Virus record (IMG/VR): IMGVR_UViG_3300020474_000061
Coordinates: 1 to 32,749 of that record
Direction: 5' to 3' (one strand)
DNA: 32,749 nt
DNA from: a virus
Of the stretch, positions 15,218 to 32,680 are shown piece by piece; positions within the stretch are counted from its first letter, which is position 1; each line of letters begins with the position of its first letter. The notes under the pieces are model-generated. The model saw only the letters and a list, made by a program, of their open reading frames with translations, ran no database searches and had not been told where the DNA came from. Both the position numbers and the translations under genes were made by a program.

Positions 15218-15570
15218 CTTCTTAGTAATTTTTGGATAGGCACTTGTTTCAGTTTGTCCACTACATCTGTCTCCACTCTCTCAACAATCTTATCAAGTAC
15301 ATCTATATCAATCTCCATAAAAGGTGGAATGATACCTAATAATCTTAACAGACCATCAACAAATAACGCAAGTGCAGTAAACCCTAATATCATACTGATA
15401 ACAGTAGCATCACGATTATGTTTACGCATTGACTCTTCATCAATCTTTCTTGCTTCATCAATAGCATACTTGATGAGAGCATCCACTTCTTCCTTTGTGT
15501 ATGTGTCTTTACTCATAGGTTTTCTGATAACCTCGGTAAGTGGAAAATCCTTAATTAAAGTTCTTACCAT
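15214..15570 (-). CDS. 118-aa membrane protein with soluble helical domain
   Basis: Residues 1-52 are charged and helical (DTYTKEEVDALIKYAIDEAR). A membrane segment follows at about 54-77 (TVISMILGFTALALFVDGLL), then a C-terminal acidic/basic helix with DVLDKIVERVETDVVDKLK. The ATG overlaps the stop of the second halogenase-like gene; a start at codon 19 is an alternative. Could anchor a partner protein at the membrane; inference only. Confidence 0.7.
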   Translation of the reverse strand: MVRTLIKDFPLTEVIRKPMSKDTYTKEEVDALIKYAIDEARKIDEESMRKHNRDATVISMILGFTALALFVDGLLRLLGIIPPFMEIDIDVLDKIVERVETDVVDKLKQVPIQKLLRR

Positions 15571-16949
15571 GTTATTGGATCGAGGTTGATTTCTCCGAAA
15601 GGTTCGGATGATGGTGGTAACATGTCTGTCATTAATGGAAATAGGTGAGCATAAGGTGAACCGAGACCTCTAGTAGTCTCAGTAAATATCTGATAACTAC
15701 CTAACAATCTGTAAGGTTCATCAGATACAGCAGTTTGTTTTTGTCTCAAACGCTGTTCATCATCTGCTAATCTCCTAAAATAATCTAAACGAATATTCTC
15801 TTCTGGTGGGATGAGTTCATTCATTTTAAGATATTCATATTGTATGAGATTTGTAGATATATCAAAGTGTTCTCTGTTCTCTAAACATAAACAAGCATTT
15901 GTTCTAGTTTGTTTCCAGAACTCAGTTTTATATTGAGAACCTTCCTGTAGATAGAAACCGAGTGATGATGCACAATCTTTTTTGCCATCTTGATACCTGT
16001 CCTCTACATCTAACCTTTGATATTCTGTCTGTTGTCTCTCAGGATCTTCAAACAGATATTCTGCTATTGCTTCTGCTAAATCTCCTTCAAGATAGTTTTT
16101 AAAGTTGTTTAACTCATCGTTAAACCCCAATGCACGACCACATCTTGCATACCTATTATTAGGATGAATACAATAGTCTGATAACATTTTATCATACTCA
16201 CTTATCTTAGGCAACTCATTTGTTGTTATTTCACAATGGTCATTAAAGTCTTTAATAGCATCATCAAGTGTTGTTATATCTTTATCGTATGAATATATCC
16301 ATGTTTGAGCATCTTTAATAGGAATGCCTGTTAAATATCCATGTTTACCTGCAATATGTGCAGTATAATTCCATTTACCCTCTACCTTTTTATGAACTGT
16401 TAGAGATGCATTTGTTGGATTATATAATGCTTCACTATAAGAATTATGATCCCATAATGCACCTTTAGTACAATCAATTACAAAATCATACTTCTCATCA
16501 AGTATTTTAACATGATCGTTTTGTACATCAATATATTCTACATGAGCATCTATCATCTTGACATTTTTAGCAGTATTAGTATAACTATTCCAGAATAAAT
16601 CTACCATTTTTCTACCGTTTAAATGCCAACCCACATGAGTTAGTTCATACAGTACATAAAAATTATGTGGTGTGTCATTACCAAATCCAATAAACTTTTT
16701 ACCCCATTTTTGTTTACCATCTAATAATTTTGATAGATGCATTGAATTTAATGTAGTATTCTCTCCGACTATTTCTCCCCACTCGGACTCGGTTTGTATT
16801 CCATAGTCATCAATAATATGAGAGCAATCACGAATCCAAACTATTTCATCATCCTGATATACACTATCCATAGTATCCCTATGTGACACGCAATTCAATA
16901 ATACCTGTACTGCGTCAGTACCACCAATAATAGCAATTTTTCTAGTCAT
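15564..16949 (-). CDS. Degenerate flavin-dependent halogenase paralogue
   Basis: 461 residues, clearly related to the upstream 435-residue halogenase along the chain. Matching blocks: KWGKKFIGFG (81-90) against KFGNRFVGWG; GYLTGIPIKDAQTW (204-217) against GWMFGIPLQSRRTY; NRYARCGRALGF (265-276) against GRYARNGNALGF. The equivalent of the catalytic lysine is present (Lys81). The dinucleotide site is altered: GGTDAV instead of GAGVIG at 9-14. The catalytic Glu is replaced: FNDELNN (Asn281) instead of FLDPLEA. It is therefore unlikely to be an active halogenase by the standard mechanism. It may be a partner subunit or substrate-binding protein. It begins three bases after the active copy. Confidence 0.75.
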   Translation of the reverse strand: MTRKIAIIGGTDAVQVLLNCVSHRDTMDSVYQDDEIVWIRDCSHIIDDYGIQTESEWGEIVGENTTLNSMHLSKLLDGKQKWGKKFIGFGNDTPHNFYVLYELTHVGWHLNGRKMVDLFWNSYTNTAKNVKMIDAHVEYIDVQNDHVKILDEKYDFVIDCTKGALWDHNSYSEALYNPTNASLTVHKKVEGKWNYTAHIAGKHGYLTGIPIKDAQTWIYSYDKDITTLDDAIKDFNDHCEITTNELPKISEYDKMLSDYCIHPNNRYARCGRALGFNDELNNFKNYLEGDLAEAIAEYLFEDPERQQTEYQRLDVEDRYQDGKKDCASSLGFYLQEGSQYKTEFWKQTRTNACLCLENREHFDISTNLIQYEYLKMNELIPPEENIRLDYFRRLADDEQRLRQKQTAVSDEPYRLLGSYQIFTETTRGLGSPYAHLFPLMTDMLPPSSEPFGEINLDPITW

Positions 16950-16952
16950 AAG

Positions 16953-18260
16953 TTATGTAAATGTAGGAAACTTGTTAGCATAATCTGCACTCATTCCTCT
17001 AGTAAATGAACTGAAGTTATAGTAATCACGACAGAAATCGAAAGTAAACTCAACATCAAGTAAATCATGAACAAATAACCTTCTCATTTCTGGGTCATCC
17101 CCTATAATATTAAACAAATCATCAGTAAATGTTTGTTCATCACTTATTAAACGACAAGGATTAATTTCCTTATTATTTAATATATCTTTAGCATTTTTCT
17201 GGACTTGTTGCCAGAATGGTGTGTCATGTTCTGAACCAAAATGATACATCCATGCTGAATTTAATAACCAATCTCCAACAACCTCCTGATAATACCAACT
17301 GTTGATATTATTAATAAGGTCTATACTATTATATGTATCGCCAAGAGCATAATTTGCCATCTTATCTGTCACACTATCATAATACATACCTGCTAGTGCT
17401 TCAAGTGGGTCAAGAAATCCCAACGCATTTCCATTACGAGCATATCTACCACTATGATGTAGTACATAGTTAGAGAATTTGGGTTTCCAAGTAAACTTAT
17501 TATATTGATATCCTTCCTGAGGAATTAGACTTCTAAACTCTTGTTGTGCTTCCTCTTCTGTTGTGACACTTGAATTATAGGCATAACCATAAGTTCTCCT
17601 GCTTTGTAATGGAATTCCAAACATCCAACCATTTCGAGTGGTCTGTGTCAATGTATAACCCCAATCTGCAGGTTCTGGTAGTCTAGTAGCAAGAACTGTA
17701 TTACAAGTCTCAAAGGGTGAATCAAAGTAATAATCATCATTCACCAGTGATTTGCCACCACTACAATCTAATACAAAATCATATGTCTCTCCATCAATAA
17801 CAACACCGAAGCAATGTCCACCTATAGGGTCTTGATCGAAACTTATTGATCTTATTTTAGTATCCCTTGACTCAAAATTATAACAACTTTCTTCAGTTAA
17901 ATGTTCAATAAAGAAACTACTGAATAATCTAGTATCAAAATGAATAGCAGCAGTACTCATAGGAAAATATCTGGTAAAATCTCCCCCATTTTTACCCCAT
18001 CCTACAAATCTATTACCAAACTTGATAGTAGCATCAAAATAATCTTTAGAATCATATCTTAAATATGATGGTGGACTAGCAATTTGTCCTGATAATGATG
18101 GTGTTGTTGACTCTCCAATACCAAATATATCTATTGATGTATCATACAACCATACTATCCTACAATCATTCTCTGCATCAGCATTAGTTCGCTCTTCTAT
18201 CAACTGTAGAATAGAGTTGATACCAATAACACCTGCACCGATAACAGCAATTTTTTTCAT
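16953..18260 (-). CDS. Flavin-dependent (tryptophan-type) halogenase
   Basis: 435 residues. Motifs: FAD site GAGVIG at 8-13; second flavin motif GIGESTTP at 47-54; catalytic lysine Lys80 in ATIKFGNRFVGWG; GWMFGIP at 211-217 in place of the usual W-x-W-x-I-P; and GFLDPLEA with Glu287 in the position of the second catalytic residue. These fit enzymes that use FADH2, O2 and halide to make HOX and pass it down a tunnel to lysine. A viral member from cyanophage Syn10 (VirX1) is described as iodinating many substrates. A host or phage flavin reductase would supply FADH2; none is in this window. The gene overlaps the ligase-like gene upstream by 4 bases. Substrate unknown. Confidence 0.9.
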   Translation of the reverse strand: MKKIAVIGAGVIGINSILQLIEERTNADAENDCRIVWLYDTSIDIFGIGESTTPSLSGQIASPPSYLRYDSKDYFDATIKFGNRFVGWGKNGGDFTRYFPMSTAAIHFDTRLFSSFFIEHLTEESCYNFESRDTKIRSISFDQDPIGGHCFGVVIDGETYDFVLDCSGGKSLVNDDYYFDSPFETCNTVLATRLPEPADWGYTLTQTTRNGWMFGIPLQSRRTYGYAYNSSVTTEEEAQQEFRSLIPQEGYQYNKFTWKPKFSNYVLHHSGRYARNGNALGFLDPLEALAGMYYDSVTDKMANYALGDTYNSIDLINNINSWYYQEVVGDWLLNSAWMYHFGSEHDTPFWQQVQKNAKDILNNKEINPCRLISDEQTFTDDLFNIIGDDPEMRRLFVHDLLDVEFTFDFCRDYYNFSSFTRGMSADYANKFPTFT

Positions 18261-20091: not shown

Positions 20092-21795
20092 TTAGTAAAT
20101 TACTTTAATATCTCCATTGTTCGGTTTAACTTCATATTTACTACCAGCAACTGCACGACCTGCAGCACCACCTTGTGAACCACCTGCTTCACCCCAGTCA
20201 CCACCATTACCACCAGGTTGACCAGGACCACCAGGTTGACCAGGTTGACCAGGATTGCCAGGTGTACCAGGTTGACCAGGTTGACCATCGCTACCCTTTG
20301 AACCAGGTTGACCATCGCTACCAGGTGTTCCAGAAGTACCAGGTGTACCAGGTGTTCCAGGTGTACCAGGTGTAGCAGCACTACAACTTGCAGCACCACC
20401 AGGTGTACCAGGTGTACCACCACTGCCAGGTGTTCCACTTCCGCCAGGTGTACCAGGTGTTCCTGGTTGTCCACTTCCGCCAGGTGTACCAGGTGTTCCT
20501 GCTCCTCCTCCACCACCAGGTGTGCCAGGTGTTCCGAAACTACCAGGTGTTCCTGTTATGTTACCAGTTTTATAATTCCAGCCACGACCTGGTGCTGCTG
20601 TACCACCTAATCCTTTTACTCCACCTTGTCCTGAATAACCTGCAGGTCCTCCAGTTCCACCCTGACCACCGCCACCGCCAGATCCACCTTGACCACCTGA
20701 ACCACCGCCACCAGAATTACCATGTAAACCTTTAGAACCTGCACCACCTGCTGCACCACCAAAACATGCCATTTTTGACTGTGCTGCTGACCTTGCTTGT
20801 CCACTACTTGTTGCTTGATATGATGTTCTACCTTGAATTTGTCCACGACGACTACGAGGCCACCCACCAAATCTCCTACGACGAGAACTCCTGTTTTGTG
20901 CTGTTGTCCTATTTTGTACTGTGGCTCTTTGTTGGAATGTTGTTCTTTGCATACCAGGTGTACCAGTAGATCCTGCTGATCCATCTGATCCATCTGATCC
21001 ATCACTACCTGCACCACCATCTGATCCATCACTACCTGTACCACCATCAGAACCAGGTGTGCCAGGTACTCCAGTGGACTCTCCAGTGCCATTTGAACCG
21101 TCTACACCATCAACACCATCTTTTCCACCTCCACCTCCACCATATATCCTAGCGTCTGAACCTTCACACTCTACAAATACTTTTCTAATCGCAGGACCTG
21201 ATGGTTGACTGATACTAATAGCATGTCCGCCAGGTTGATTGATAGTACCACCTGCACCATATACACCATAAGATGATGGTGCATTGTTAACAAATAATGT
21301 TAGGTTAGATGATGGTTGATCGGCAACAGCAGCAGGATTTGATATATTAGTACTTACTAGTCTACCTTTAATCTTGAGAAATTTTGATATATTTTTATTT
21401 AAGTTTGAGTTCCAATCAGCATTGATACTAGGTGTTGTAGGACTACTTAGAGTAGTAACATTAAAGTTCTCCTCCTCTGTCAATGTATCCTGTTCAATCA
21501 CATATTCTTTTATGACTCCTCTTACATCCTGTGGTGTAATTGCACCAGTGGTAGGTACACCAACATTCTCAGTAGCATCTAAAACATAAGGTAGATGTGG
21601 TGCTGATGATGATGGATATTTACCCTGACTAAAATCATATGGTGCATCAAGGTCTGTTTGTCTGTGTAATTCTGAAGCAGAAATAGATTTACTAGTATCA
21701 CCTATAGCAGCACGAATTTCACCAAATGATATTTGTGTGCCAGGTGTACCAGTCAATAACTGTTGAGTTGTCTTACTCCAATTATTTGCTGCCAT
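20092..21795 (-). CDS. Collagen-like virion fibre protein
   Basis: 567 residues in three parts. Residues 1-220 form an N-terminal domain with GTQISFGEIRAAIGD and SISASELHRQTD, elements of cyanophage tail-fibre proteins, followed by a Ser/Pro-rich area. Residues about 222-288 and 357-545 are G-x-y repeats (GSDGSDG, then GTPGTPGGSG, GQPGQPG). The two parts are separated by a 67-residue non-collagen insert rich in Gln and Arg (MQRTTFQQRATVQNR, SSRRRRFGGWPRSRRG). Residues 546-567 are a short end domain. Collagen-like sections trimerise; the insert may bind DNA, LPS or partner proteins. GAGGAAA before the ATG. A promoter was not identified. Confidence 0.85.
   Translation of the reverse strand: MAANNWSKTTQQLLTGTPGTQISFGEIRAAIGDTSKSISASELHRQTDLDAPYDFSQGKYPSSSAPHLPYVLDATENVGVPTTGAITPQDVRGVIKEYVIEQDTLTEEENFNVTTLSSPTTPSINADWNSNLNKNISKFLKIKGRLVSTNISNPAAVADQPSSNLTLFVNNAPSSYGVYGAGGTINQPGGHAISISQPSGPAIRKVFVECEGSDARIYGGGGGGKDGVDGVDGSNGTGESTGVPGTPGSDGGTGSDGSDGGAGSDGSDGSDGSAGSTGTPGMQRTTFQQRATVQNRTTAQNRSSRRRRFGGWPRSRRGQIQGRTSYQATSSGQARSAAQSKMACFGGAAGGAGSKGLHGNSGGGGSGGQGGSGGGGGQGGTGGPAGYSGQGGVKGLGGTAAPGRGWNYKTGNITGTPGSFGTPGTPGGGGGAGTPGTPGGSGQPGTPGTPGGSGTPGSGGTPGTPGGAASCSAATPGTPGTPGTPGTSGTPGSDGQPGSKGSDGQPGQPGTPGNPGQPGQPGGPGQPGGNGGDWGEAGGSQGGAAGRAVAGSKYEVKPNNGDIKVIY
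20190..21140 (-). repeat. Collagen-type G-x-y coding repeat with insert
   Basis: The DNA has near-exact nine-base repeats (ccaggtgta, ccaggtgtt on the plus strand) for about 500 bases at 20190-20540 and a lower-grade Gly/Asp/Ser version at 20955-21140. The repeated sequence runs open in other frames on both strands. The insert 20764-20952 is not repetitive. Repeat number is likely to vary between isolates through slippage and recombination. Confidence 0.8.
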
Positions 21796-29730: not shown

Positions 29731-29988
29731 ATGGATTTTCAAAAAGTAACTACAGGAGTAACAGCAGCTGCAGTCGTAGGAACTGGTGCAGTTGTTGGTG
29801 GTGGTCAAGTTATTGACAATATGAATAATGGACCTGCTAGGAGACAAGAAGCACAATTAGAAGAGATACGAAAAGTTGTTAGAGAAGAAATTTATATACA
29901 ACTGGTAGAAAACTGGCCGAAATCATCTGGTCCTGTCAAAGGATTAAAACCACCTGTAGACTACAAAAATCAAATTCCAACTAAATGA
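29731..29988 (+). CDS. 85-aa small protein with hydrophobic start
   Basis: MDFQKVTTGVTAAAVVGTGA followed by VVGGGQVIDNMNNGPARRQE. An Ala/Val/Gly-rich hydrophobic segment at 6-26 lies before an amphipathic charged region (EEIRKVVREEIYIQLVENW) and a Lys/Pro-rich tail. Probably membrane-associated or a virion component, since late promoters precede it and the fibre block is adjacent. One of two genes on the plus strand. Confidence 0.7.
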   Translation: MDFQKVTTGVTAAAVVGTGAVVGGGQVIDNMNNGPARRQEAQLEEIRKVVREEIYIQLVENWPKSSGPVKGLKPPVDYKNQIPTK

Positions 29989-30001: not shown

Positions 30002-30874
30002 ATGGAACCATTTGAAATACCAAATATAGAAACCGATGGTGTTAGTATACCTAACATTCATATTAATGGTACTGAAATTAGAATCATTCCTTATTCTGGT
30101 GTAAGAGGTATTGGTAATAATTATGTACAAGATACTCGTGTATGGATAGTTACACCACCACAATCTATACCATCAGCAGTCCCTGTTACTGAACGAATAG
30201 GAACTCCTATTGTTGATATGCCTGGTTGTGTAAAAGTTCATAAAGAAAACGCAAAAAATCCACAAAACAAAAACAAAATGTTAGTGGATAATGATCCTAA
30301 AGGAAATGTAGTATTATGTGATGGTGGTATGCCATACTATGAACCACCTGATTATGATGCTAGAGATTTAACTTGGCAAACTATAACCACAGAAGAACCT
30401 GAAGCTCAAGGTGTAGATACTGGAGAACCACCTGCACCTGATGTAAACACTCCAGAACCGCCTGTAACACCTCCAACTGATAAAGAAGTAGAATGTCCTC
30501 CTATCAATGGAAGACGAGTTGGAGACTTAAATCAAGAGGGTACAGAAAGAGTAACTGGTCATAAATTAACACCTGATGGTCTCATCTGTGAGACATTATG
30601 GGAAGATGTTCCAGCATTGCAACAGTATGTACCGTCAGTATCTGTAATATCAACTACCGCAACGATTGCTACTGTGGCAACTGCGTCTGCCCTATTTGCC
30701 AAACCCCTAGCAGATTTGCTCCTGAGGGTGGTGAAACCTGTAGTGAAGAAAGCTCTTGGGAAGGTTCAGACGATCCTTGGGAAGTCTCCTCAACGGGCTT
30801 CTCGATCCGATATGATTCGGGATCGTTATCGGGAGAAGAAAGGGTTACCTCCTTTGAAGGTGAAGAAGAAGTAG
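30002..30874 (+). CDS. 290-aa conserved cyanophage-type structural protein
   Basis: N-terminal beta region with IPNIETDGVSIPNIHINGTE and IRIIPYSGVRGIGNNYVQDT, then a Pro/Glu/Thr-rich linker at about 125-165 (EEPEAQGVDTGEPPAPDV), a CPPINGRRVGDLN block, and a hydrophobic helix at about 212-240 (VSVISTTATIATVATASALF). The last 45 residues are strongly basic (KPVVKKALGKVQ, YREKKGLPPLKVKKK). I recall such proteins as conserved near tail genes in cyanomyoviruses; function unknown. Its last 206 bases overlap a minus-strand gene that runs into it. Confidence 0.75.
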   Translation: MEPFEIPNIETDGVSIPNIHINGTEIRIIPYSGVRGIGNNYVQDTRVWIVTPPQSIPSAVPVTERIGTPIVDMPGCVKVHKENAKNPQNKNKMLVDNDPKGNVVLCDGGMPYYEPPDYDARDLTWQTITTEEPEAQGVDTGEPPAPDVNTPEPPVTPPTDKEVECPPINGRRVGDLNQEGTERVTGHKLTPDGLICETLWEDVPALQQYVPSVSVISTTATIATVATASALFAKPLADLLLRVVKPVVKKALGKVQTILGKSPQRASRSDMIRDRYREKKGLPPLKVKKK

Positions 30875-31682
30875 GTGGTGTCCATTTAGGTTGTGGTATC
30901 TCATGTTGATGTGGCAGTATCTGACCACCAGGTGATGTTACAACTACATCAGCACAAATACTATAGTAAGGAGATTTTGGATGGAAAAATATTCCTGATT
31001 TTTTTAATTCACCACAATTTTTTAATCTTGCGATTTCAAAGTCTAATCTCTTGTTAGAGACTAATTGAGTTTGCATTGCTATTTGCTGTTCAGCTGCCTG
31101 TTTACATAAATCCTGCATTTTCTTGTTCAATGGTATTGATAATGTAGCAGATATACCAATATTAAATGATTGGTTTGCTCTCATATCAGTCCTTATAGGT
31201 TTATACCATATTGGATCTAAAGTATTATTAGTTACAGCATCAGGTACACCGTCTCCTGCAGGTACTTGAACCTCTATTTGCATATCTTCTCCATCTGGGA
31301 ACCATCTTGTTCCATCATCCTTAGTACGGTTATCATACCATGTCTCCCAAGGATAGTTCTTGACTGTGATTGTTTGAGTGGTTGTTCTACCAGATATATC
31401 TGTTAAATTATATTGTGGTTCGTTATAAAAATCTTCCCAAGGATCTTTTCTGCTATCAGCAAACTGCATGTATGGTGTCATATTGAGAGTCGTACTCTGA
31501 CACGATACCTGTCCACCATAGGTATTAGTTACATATGGACCTTGTAAAACTTGTATTGCCTGGTTGGTTACTGAGCCTGAAGAATTGGCGATTGGATTGG
31601 CAGTGGCACTAACACCGCCAACACCCTCAGCTAAGGCTTTTATTGGTAAGAAATAGTTAACGCCCAAAAGCGTTGCTATCAC
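30669..31682 (-). CDS. Third secreted-type protein, GTG start, convergent overlap
   Basis: No ATG exists in frame between the upstream gene and its hydrophobic N terminus; GTG 31682 overlaps the preceding TGA as GTGA, giving 337 residues beginning (M)IATLLGVNYFLPIKALA-EGVGG, a plausible signal peptide. The mature part has SCQSTTLNMTPYMQF, two WE-rich motifs (DPWEDFYNEPQY and YPWETWYDN), a helix-rich area with QDLCKQAAEQQIAMQTQL, and a Ser/Pro-rich C terminus. Cysteines could form disulphides outside the cytoplasm. The open form to 31988 seen in the same frame overlaps the neighbour gene for its whole first part and is rejected. The last 206 bases lie antisense to the 290-aa gene. Confidence 0.7.
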   Translation of the reverse strand: MIATLLGVNYFLPIKALAEGVGGVSATANPIANSSGSVTNQAIQVLQGPYVTNTYGGQVSCQSTTLNMTPYMQFADSRKDPWEDFYNEPQYNLTDISGRTTTQTITVKNYPWETWYDNRTKDDGTRWFPDGEDMQIEVQVPAGDGVPDAVTNNTLDPIWYKPIRTDMRANQSFNIGISATLSIPLNKKMQDLCKQAAEQQIAMQTQLVSNKRLDFEIARLKNCGELKKSGIFFHPKSPYYSICADVVVTSPGGQILPHQHEIPQPKWTPPTSSSPSKEVTLSSPDNDPESYRIEKPVEETSQGSSEPSQELSSLQVSPPSGANLLGVWQIGQTQLPQ

Positions 31683-32146
31683 TGGGTAAATGTACTTGTT
31701 GTATCTGTGACGCTTTGGATAGTGGTTACTCTCTGTATTATTGTTTGATTCGTCATCCCAGGTCCTTGATAACTTTGAGTAAATTGGAAGGCTGCTCCTG
31801 GTGTTGTTTGGGTAAAGTTGTTTTGAGCTGAGAAGTCTAACGCATCGAAGGAAGAAGTTACGCTGCCTGTTACTGCTGCGTCTCCTGACCCTACGGTTGG
31901 GTTGACTGTTACTGTCGATGTCGATGTTGGTGGGTTTAATGGCTGACCATTGTTGTCTATGCCTACCCCAGTCACTGAGTATTCCCATCCTGTCCTATAA
32001 TCAATGGAATTTATGGTTTCCGTTACTGTAGATTCAGTTTCGGTATGGCTCGTCATTGAGCCTTGCTGAAAATTGGGGACCACTGGCACTGCTCTTGCAG
32101 CTCCAGTACTACCTAACAATACTAATATAGTTATAAGCCTTTTCAT
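31679..32146 (-). CDS. Second secreted-type protein, 155 aa
   Basis: Signal peptide MKRLITILVLLGSTGAARA with AxA cleavage before VPVVP. The mature part is Thr/Ser/Gly-rich beta sequence (SHTETESTVTETINSIDYRT, NPTVGSGDAAVTGSVTSS). The block TPGAAFQFTQSYQGPG matches VPGATFSFSQAYTQAD in the 164-aa neighbour, so the two are paralogues. Likely exported or virion-bound adhesin-like protein. Confidence 0.75.
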   Translation of the reverse strand: MKRLITILVLLGSTGAARAVPVVPNFQQGSMTSHTETESTVTETINSIDYRTGWEYSVTGVGIDNNGQPLNPPTSTSTVTVNPTVGSGDAAVTGSVTSSFDALDFSAQNNFTQTTPGAAFQFTQSYQGPGMTNQTIIQRVTTIQSVTDTTSTFTQ

Positions 32147-32154
32147 GACCTATT

Positions 32155-32649
32155 TTATCGTACGGTAACCTCGGTTACGAACTGAGTCGTAGCTGAAGTA
32201 TTTGCTCCACCAGGTGCCACACTACTAAAAGCGTGATTGCTAGATGTTTGACCAGCTAAATTACCAACTGTTCCGCCAGCAGTACTAGTAACATTACCAA
32301 AATTAGCAGTCTCACCAACTGTTACAGCACCTGTAGGAACTGCATCGGCTTGGGTGTAGGCTTGGCTAAAGCTGAAAGTTGCACCAGGAACATCCTGAGT
32401 TGCTGAAATTGTACCTGGAGCATATACGCCCGAAGTTACTGTGCCAGCAGAAATAGTATTAGCAGTAGTACCATCAGTGGTATCAACACCACTACCAGAA
32501 ATCGAGAAAGATGACCCAATTCTCTCAGCCGAAGTATGGGCTCCTCCTACGCTCAACTGCACACTAGATGCATATCGAGTTGTAATATCGGCTCTCGCTG
32601 CAAGCGGAGCACTCATCAATAACATTATAAAAGGGATAAACCTTTTCAT
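32155..32649 (-). CDS. First secreted-type protein, 164 aa
   Basis: Signal peptide MKRFIPFIMLLMSAPLAARA with cleavage after ARA (before DITTRYASS). The mature domain is Ser/Thr/Gly-rich and ends with a beta-like TSATTQFVTEVTVR. Late promoter about 24 bases upstream. Phage proteins with Sec signals in a T4-like phage are unusual; the host membrane or periplasm could be the target, inference only. Confidence 0.75.
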   Translation of the reverse strand: MKRFIPFIMLLMSAPLAARADITTRYASSVQLSVGGAHTSAERIGSSFSISGSGVDTTDGTTANTISAGTVTSGVYAPGTISATQDVPGATFSFSQAYTQADAVPTGAVTVGETANFGNVTSTAGGTVGNLAGQTSSNHAFSSVAPGGANTSATTQFVTEVTVR

Positions 32650-32672: not shown

Positions 32673-32680
32673 CTATTTAG
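32673..32680 (-). promoter_or_regulatory. Late-type promoter for the secreted-protein genes
   Basis: CTAAATAG on the minus strand, 24 bases before the ATG at 32649. Same form as the CTAAATA at 29692-29698. The remaining 69 bases to the right edge show no gene. Confidence 0.55.

What the first reader, a model, noticed from the sequence alone, without database searches (positions are those of the whole stretch)
30669..32649. Three signal-peptide proteins in a row in a T4-like phage
Each begins with a Sec-type signal with AxA-like cleavage site (ARA, ARA, ALA). The first two are paralogues; the third starts with GTG overlapping the previous stop. Proteins exported to the periplasm are not typical of virion assembly and could act on the host envelope.
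Basis: partly seen in the sequence, partly recalled or inferred. Interest (0 to 1): 0.55.

Follow-up and report, generated by a model that had tools for sequence, protein, structure and literature searches.

The report
Exported-protein cassette shared by marine cyanophages
Three secreted proteins in a row in this ocean virus belong to a small gene cassette that quite different viruses of marine cyanobacteria share, and which may act on the host cell's outer layers late in infection, perhaps to burst the cell; one of the three genes begins inside its neighbour.

Summary
Three adjacent minus-strand genes (g1 32155-32649, g2 31679-32146, g3) encode proteins with Sec-type signal peptides; g1 and g2 are paralogues. 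But g3 probably does not start at the GTG overlapping g2's stop (present in 8 of 91 loci). Its conserved start is ATG 31988 inside a Trp codon of g2, so 102 codons are read in two frames and a long basic n-region precedes the signal core. g1-g4 are each found in 369-417 cyanophage records, mostly T4-like among those listed. g2 and g3, with a two-transmembrane holin-like protein (phrog_721/2714) and a g4 or g4-like protein, also occur in T7-like cyanopodoviruses and a siphovirus-like phage; in P-SSP7, SS120-1, S-TIP37 and NATL1A-7 they lie just upstream of terminase genes, where T7 keeps lysis genes (recalled). A T4-type late promoter motif precedes g1 in 25 of 29 loci. Sharing across virion types within one host group argues for action on the host. 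Best explanation: a late envelope-disruption (lysis) module. Not shown: no enzyme domain, no confident fold, no experiment; superinfection exclusion, a virion role or host-physiology effects remain possible. None of the paper listings or passages seen assigns a function.

The parts
32155..32649 (-). g1: exported protein, 164 aa; signal peptide MKRFIPFIMLLMSAPLAARA|DITT; phrog_564, T4-GC 237
31679..32146 (-). g2: exported protein, 155 aa; signal peptide MKRLITILVLLGSTGAARA|VPVV; phrog_650, DUF6322 (PF19847), T4-GC 236; paralogue of g1
30669..31988 (-). g3: exported protein, 439 aa from ATG 31988; 102-residue basic extension, hydrophobic core, cleavage ALA|EGVGG (mature part from 31628); phrog_848/1755, T4-GC 235; four invariant Cys in 26 aligned sequences
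31986..31988 (-). probable true g3 start ATG, embedded in GGA-TGG (Gly-Trp) of g2, -1 frame
   Evidence: first ATG of the g3 frame lies in ATGG in 90 of 91 loci
31680..31682 (-).
   Evidence: GTG there in 8 of 91 loci
31679..31988 (-). dual-coding overlap: g2 C-terminal half and g3 N-terminal extension in -1 frame
   Evidence: 37 of 39 non-redundant loci open over the last 54 g2 codons, 15% expected
32674..32680 (-). CTAAATA, T4-type late promoter-like motif 31 bases before g1
   Evidence: motif in 25 of 29 loci, 70 of 8700 random windows
30002..30874 (+). g4: convergent gene, 290 aa; IP/Pro-rich N-terminal part with conserved Cys, C-terminal hydrophobic segment then basic tail; phrog_570, T4-GC 234
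30669..30874 (.). 206-base convergent overlap of the 3' ends of g3 and g4
   Evidence: overlaps in other loci
29731..29988 (+). g5: small protein with one N-terminal hydrophobic segment, 85 aa; phrog_22018, T4-GC 231; found in some but not all of the T4-like phages examined

Best explanation
g1, g2 and g3 are the exported part of a late-expressed, host-envelope-directed cassette of phages of marine picocyanobacteria. Steps supported by sequence: (1) in T4-like members a late-type promoter motif precedes g1-g2-g3; (2) all three carry Sec signal peptides with AxA-like sites; (3) g3 translation starts inside g2; (4) in small phages g2 and g3 sit directly beside a two-transmembrane holin-like protein (phrog_721/2714) and a g4 or g4-like protein. 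Steps inferred: after export g3 (probably disulphide-bonded, a beta region plus a long helix) and g1/g2 assemble in the periplasm or at the outer membrane, g4 anchors the complex to the inner membrane, and when the holin-like protein triggers, the complex breaches the outer layers so that progeny are released: a lysis module doing the job of spanins without being spanins.
For: Signal peptides conserved. Late promoter-like motif 20 to 50 bases before g1 in 25 of 29 loci against 0.8% of random windows. g3 in 417 phage records; its P-SSP7 homologue finds 453, including many T7-like cyanopodoviruses. MED4-117, siphovirus-like by its tail genes, carries phrog_721 > g1 > g2 > g3 >< g4 < phrog_568. 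In P-SSP7 the order is fibre genes > g4-like > two-TM > g2 > g3 > TerS > TerL; SS120-1 has g4-like > two-TM (disrupted) > g2 > g3 > TerS > TerL; NATL1A-7 and S-TIP37 have g4-like > two-TM > g2 > g3 upstream of the large terminase gene. T7 has its holin and spanin genes there (recalled). phrog_721 in 18 of 18 g3-bearing records (g3); the two g3-lacking records tested have none (S-SZBM1) or only a 5e-5 match across two stops (S-CREM2). S-CREM2 instead carries annotated lysozymes, one with a sub-cut-off GH19 match and absent from the other 19 records. Amidase_2 in 0 of 13 phages; Phage_lysozyme in 2 of 13, both inside ORFs of 925 and 1456 aa, the S-CREM2 one in an ORF found in virions. Four invariant Cys in g3.
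Against: No hydrolase, spanin or lipoprotein signature in g1-g3. No soluble endolysin was identified in the cassette, and only two lysozyme/amidase models were tested across 13 phages. Other papers place candidate lysis enzymes elsewhere in T4-like cyanophages: virion hydrolases in S-SCSM1, five 'lysis' ORFs in S-CREM1, one lysis gene in S-SZBM1 (passages); whether these make the cassette needless is unknown. The podovirus 'g4-like' proteins share layout, not a significant profile match, with g4 (phrog_570 E 0.18 for P-SSP7). In T4-like phages phrog_721 lies on the other strand, kilobases away, beside genes such as regA, and it was not found in the window or four related contigs, all fragments. 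Two g3-lacking phages are too few for a correlation. Late timing fits virion proteins equally well. Sharing between T4-like and T7-like cyanophages is also seen for metabolic genes such as talC, so it does not single out lysis. AlphaFold2 models are weak (mean pLDDT 54.3 and 59.5).
Confidence: 0.4

Rival explanations
1. Superinfection exclusion or surface remodelling: the exported proteins cover or alter the outer membrane or receptor so that further phages cannot adsorb or inject, with membrane proteins g4 and phrog_721 blocking DNA entry.
For: Exported proteins shared by competing phages of one host group; many phage exclusion factors are small membrane or periplasmic proteins (recalled); S37-C6 carries a Phage_OMP beta-barrel gene near the cassette.
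Against: Exclusion genes are usually early and dispensable (recalled), whereas this cassette is behind a late-type promoter motif and is very widely kept.
Confidence: 0.2
2. Virion or virion-associated proteins, such as appendage or adhesin proteins made late, with the signal peptides serving assembly at the membrane.
Against: Related genes occur in different virion types. The passages read name only T4-GC 15 and 190 as virion proteins of the cyanophage core, and the S-SM1 records call T4-GC 234-237 hypothetical; both are weak, as hypothetical proteins detected by MS are not always labelled (compare).
Confidence: 0.2
3. Proteins sent to the thylakoid lumen or periplasm to keep host photosynthesis or nutrient uptake running during infection.
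For: Neighbours in several T4-like phages are host-type genes (pstS, hli, psbA); metabolic genes too are shared by T4-like and T7-like cyanophages (talC); cyanobacterial Sec signals can lead to the lumen (recalled).
Against: No host chromosomal homologue seen, though the scan used only two peptide patterns; no metabolic domain; neighbours differ between phages while the cassette stays together.
Confidence: 0.12
4. g3 is made by -1 ribosomal frameshifting out of g2, giving a g2-g3 fusion, rather than from its own start inside g2.
For: g3 lies in the -1 frame of g2 and that frame is held open.
Against: The open part begins 2-5 codons before the ATG in 62 of 91 loci; the ATG is conserved, and in P-SSP7 a GTG lies at a Trp codon; P-SCSP2 and S37-C6 g3 have ordinary short signal peptides with their own ATG. 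No slippery site was noticed by eye in the window's overlap; none was searched for.
Confidence: 0.08

Closest known systems
Rz/Rz1 two-component spanins (e.g. T7 18.5/18.7, lambda; recalled)
   Same: Two exported envelope proteins from overlapping, different-frame genes, near a two-TM holin-like gene and, in podoviruses, beside terminase genes
   Different: No lipobox or N-terminal anchor in g1-g3, all have SPase I type sites; g3 has four invariant Cys; a third exported paralogue in many phages; no sequence match
Class II holins (two transmembrane segments, charged C-terminus; recalled)
   Same: phrog_721/2714 (DUF6450) proteins: 79-149 aa in the examples read, two hydrophobic segments, charged tail, beside the cassette in small phages
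   Different: No match to a named holin family in the libraries searched; no activity shown; not found in the window fragment
phrog_564, phrog_650/DUF6322, phrog_848/1755, phrog_570 (T4-GC 237, 236, 235, 234)
   Same: g1-g4 are members: E 9e-61, 1e-50, 7e-117 and 8e-82
   Different: These families have no assigned function in the library; the T7-like and siphovirus links and the dual-coding start come from this analysis

Membership tests
Sec-exported, signal-peptidase I substrate | positive n-region, hydrophobic core, small residues at -3/-1 | tested here: met
   g1 28 of 29, g2 21 of 28, g3 core 34 of 36, AxA-like site before mature g3 36 of 36; baseline 8%. Crude own test; SignalP not available
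DUF6322 (PF19847) | profile score above curated cut-off | tested here: met
   g2 131.6 bits, cut-off 30.6
Two-component spanin | outer-membrane lipoprotein (lipobox, Cys at +1) partner | tested here: not met
   no Cys at the conserved cleavage sites of g1-g3 in the alignments read; the other cassette proteins were not checked for it
Two-component spanin | partner genes overlapping in different frames | tested here: met
   g3 starts inside g2, -1 frame
Two-component spanin | required for outer-membrane breach | not testable with these tools
   needs a deletion phenotype
Class II holin (phrog_721/2714) | small, two transmembrane segments, charged C-terminus | tested here: met
   two hydrophobic segments in 5 of 5 sequences at a lenient cut-off; a stricter cut-off gave one segment in the one tested, Syn9 gp161; the P-SSP7 record itself notes two TMHMM segments
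Class II holin (phrog_721/2714) | lethal membrane permeabilisation | not testable with these tools
   no experiment
T4-like cyanophage virion protein | detected in purified virions | tested here: inconclusive
   protein tables of S-SM1, S-SCSM1 and S-SZBM1 not readable here; S-CREM2 table read but that phage lacks g3
Outer membrane protein ('OMP1' label of g1 in many records) | match to an outer-membrane family | tested here: inconclusive
   no Pfam family at E 1 and no NCBIfam family near its cut-off; a missing match does not exclude it

The most novel reading that the evidence does not exclude
A previously unrecognised lysis system of Gram-negative-type hosts, shared by T4-like, T7-like and siphovirus-like phages of Prochlorococcus and Synechococcus: a two-TM holin-like protein, a membrane-anchored Pro-rich protein and two or three secreted proteins in place of spanins, with a dual-coded signal sequence of about 30 to 100 mostly basic, polar residues ahead of the core coupling two of them.
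Probability: 0.32. Interest if true: 0.85.

Novelty: new variant of a known kind. Interest (0 to 1): 0.6.

Why it matters
Marine cyanophages are major killers of the ocean's most abundant photosynthetic cells (general knowledge), yet how they open the host is poorly assigned: the word holin does not occur in the main text of any of the eight cyanophage papers I searched for it, though some name candidate lysis enzymes. A small cassette kept across virion types in phages of this host group is a direct candidate, and T7-like cyanophages can be engineered (passages of PMC8776855), so it can be deleted. The start of one exported protein inside another gene, seen from podoviruses to myoviruses, is also an unusually clear phage case of dual coding ahead of a signal sequence, and record annotations can mis-start or miss the gene.

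Tried and rejected
GTG 31682 as start of g3: rejected on conservation. One search, my first test for stop-codon avoidance, was circular because I chose the tested region by its openness; replaced with fixed regions (4 of 95 loci dropped as too short). One search's iterated g1 profile had taken in g2 hits, so paralogy was tested anew with separate alignments. A first motif scan for TAAATA alone gave 17 of 29; the broader motif CTANATA or [TC]ATAAATA in a fixed interval gave 25 of 29, so the motif was widened after a first look. Solved-structure sequence search: nothing for g3 and g4, only matches at E 0.14 or worse for g1; g2 not searched. Structure: g1 model too poor to search; the g3 model found no PDB match at E below 0.4, and the second look gave best Z 3.8, most rows covering only the long helix. 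In the viral library 15 matches had E 0.001 or less: 7 named, all Gp165 or uncharacterised phage proteins, 8 without a name. PADLOC: no match for 8 proteins. NCBIfam: none near its cut-off. Virion proteomics: S-SM1 labels, S-SCSM1 notes and the S-SZBM1 text do not settle it. Ten paper searches: no listing or passage seen gave a function for these families; the two by family name returned 0 papers. Host origin: the genome scan gave 7 loci that I take for phage DNA, but it used only two peptide patterns.
Full report
What is there. The window is a fragment of a T4-like cyanophage: it holds two genes of T4-type baseplate wedge families, tail fibre genes and a tryptophan halogenase-like gene. At its right end are three adjacent minus-strand genes, g1 (32155-32649), g2 (31679-32146) and g3 (stop at 30669), facing two plus-strand genes, g5 (29731-29988) and g4 (30002-30874). 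PHROGs places them in families without a function: phrog_564, 650, 848/1755, 570 and 22018; Pfam has only DUF6322, for g2, above its cut-off. In the T4-GC numbering written in GenBank notes, g1, g2, g3, g4 and g5 are 237, 236, 235, 234 and 231.

Signal peptides. g1 and g2 begin MKRFIPFIMLLMSAPLAARA|D and MKRLITILVLLGSTGAARA|V. Alignments of 28 g1 and 28 g2 sequences keep the basic start, hydrophobic core and AxA-like site. A crude tripartite test passes 28 of 29 and 21 of 28, against 56 of 685 background ORFs. g1 and g2 are paralogues (probability 96%, E 2.6e-9, 63 columns). In P-SSP7 and SS120-1 only the g2-type gene was recognised, so g1 may be a later duplicate; that is inference.

The start of g3. 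In all 91 loci with both genes away from contig ends the open g3 frame holds an ATG; in 90 the first is in ATGG over a Trp codon of g2, -1 frame, and in S37-C6 it is at the g2 stop. In 72 of 91 there is no other ATG, GTG or TTG up to 15 codons past the end of g2. In P-SSP7 a GTG lies over a Trp codon. With regions fixed in advance, 37 of 39 non-redundant loci have no -1-frame stop in the last 54 codons of g2, where 15% would by synonymous resampling; total stops 5 against a mean of 73.6 (minimum 46 of 300), while the +1 frame shows no deficit (173 against 160.7). 27 of 39 stay open for 100 codons, 1% expected; in the 12 others stops in codons 55-100 exceed expectation (55 against 31.6). The five stops belong to MED4-117 and S37-C6. 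A caveat: many of these loci were fetched with a query that included the extension. The result in the T4-like phages is a dual-coded N-terminal extension of about 50 or about 100 residues, net charge +13 in the window, followed by a hydrophobic core and an AxA-like site. S37-C6 and P-SCSP2 have g3 with short ordinary signal peptides, so the extension is best read as a very long n-region. Annotation can miss g3: it is not annotated in S-SCSM1.

Expression. A late-promoter-like motif lies 20-50 bases before g1 in 25 of 29 non-redundant loci, against 70 of 8700 random windows; of the four without it two are MED4-117 and S37-C6. NATAAATA is the published late motif of S-PM2 (passages of PMC2984593); the CTANATA form is my widening of it. 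In Syn9, P-SSM7, S-SM1, S-TIM4 and P-TIM40 the three genes read against the genes on both sides (in S-TIM4 g4 reads with them).

Distribution. tblastn finds g1 in 393, g2 in 407, g3 in 417 and g4 in 369 of 50,697 phage records, named Synechococcus, Prochlorococcus, cyanophage, marine virus or uncultured. MED4-117, siphovirus-like by its annotated tape-measure and tail proteins, carries phrog_721 > g1 > g2 > g3 and, facing them, g4 and phrog_568. S37-C6, filed under Autographiviridae, has the same arrangement three small genes from its fibre gene. P-SSP7 has a g4-like protein, a two-TM protein, g2 (E 1.7e-32) and g3 (E 2.5e-51) in a row between fibre genes and terminase; the g4-like protein resembles g4 in layout (IP/Pro-rich, late hydrophobic segment, basic tail) but its profile match to phrog_570 is only E 0.18. 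The P-SSP7 g3 finds 453 records, among them P-GSP1, P-SSP2, S-RIP1, S-RIP2, S-TIP37, NATL1A-7 and P-SCSP2. P-SCSP2 has two-TM > g2 > g3 facing a g4-like gene. Clade names MPP-A, -B and -C come from passages of PMC9860041; the P-SCSP phages are its MPP-C, other assignments are recalled. The bacterial genome collection gave seven loci: five metagenome bins, one Prochlorococcus single-cell contig of 189 kb and one Nonlabens isolate contig of 188 kb; I take them for phage DNA.

Partners. The two-TM protein phrog_721 is in all 18 g3-bearing records, in P-SSP7 and four of nine IMG/VR records, not in the window or four related fragments, and, by phrog_2714, in S-TIP37, NATL1A-7 and P-SCSP2. In SS120-1 the gene is split by a frame disruption. 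phrog_568, called 'plasmid stability', is in 17 of 20 records, not in P-SSP7, and is a one-TM, Pro-rich protein. Of two phages without g3, S-SZBM1 has neither partner and S-CREM2 has only a 5e-5 match to phrog_721 across two stops. S-CREM2 has its own annotated lysozymes. Amidase_2 is in 0 of 13 phages, Phage_lysozyme only in S-SM1 and S-CREM2, within very long ORFs.

Function. A gene set kept together in different virion types but in one host group should act on the host rather than build the particle; the same is true of shared metabolic genes such as talC, so this is not specific to lysis. Exported proteins, membrane partners, late control and, in podoviruses, the position where T7 keeps holin and spanins (recalled) point to envelope breach at lysis. 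Four Cys are invariant in 26 g3 sequences, which suits an oxidising compartment. The g3 model suggests a beta region and a 42-residue helix at moderate local confidence and matches nothing solved. Against this, papers name other candidate lysis enzymes: virion hydrolases in S-SCSM1, five lysis ORFs in S-CREM1, one in S-SZBM1 (passages).

What would change this. Readable proteome tables or a single cassette deletion would decide; see next steps. Papers, as seen: PMC3037559 (passages, section 14), PMC10665884 (passages, section 18), PMC9146016 (passages, section 16), PMC2984593, PMC5082946, PMC9602691, PMC9964418, PMC9860041 and PMC8776855 (passages); all others as listings with abstract starts.

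Noticed in passing
30669-30874: g3 and g4 overlap tail to tail by 206 bases here; 74 of 90 convergent loci overlap, median 191 bases, so the two C-termini are coded on opposite strands of the same DNA.
   Followed up: partly
L005 11135-11386: In SS120-1 the holin-like gene beside g2 is interrupted by a frame disruption and is not annotated.
   Followed up: no
L094 14011-14376: S37-C6 carries, between the cassette and the fibre gene, a protein matching Phage_OMP (PF24653), a cyanophage outer-membrane beta-barrel family, with a signal-peptide-like start.
   Followed up: no
L190 3560-4474: In NATL1A-7 the frame that holds g3 is open across all of g2; the record annotates one 294-residue 'gp165' there and no g2.
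   Followed up: partly
15564-18260: Two adjacent similar-looking genes; the second matches tryptophan halogenase, the first was not scanned.
   Followed up: no
20092-21795: Collagen-like, very Gly/Pro-rich protein with weak tail-protein matches.
   Followed up: no
L101-L103, L105-L107: Five metagenome bins and a Nonlabens isolate genome in the genome collection hold DNA with this cassette gene, probably phage contamination.
   Followed up: no
L002 10215-10478: The name 'plasmid stability' for phrog_568 seems misleading: a short one-TM, Pro-rich membrane protein kept near this cassette. Likewise 'OMP1' for g1 has no family support.
   Followed up: partly
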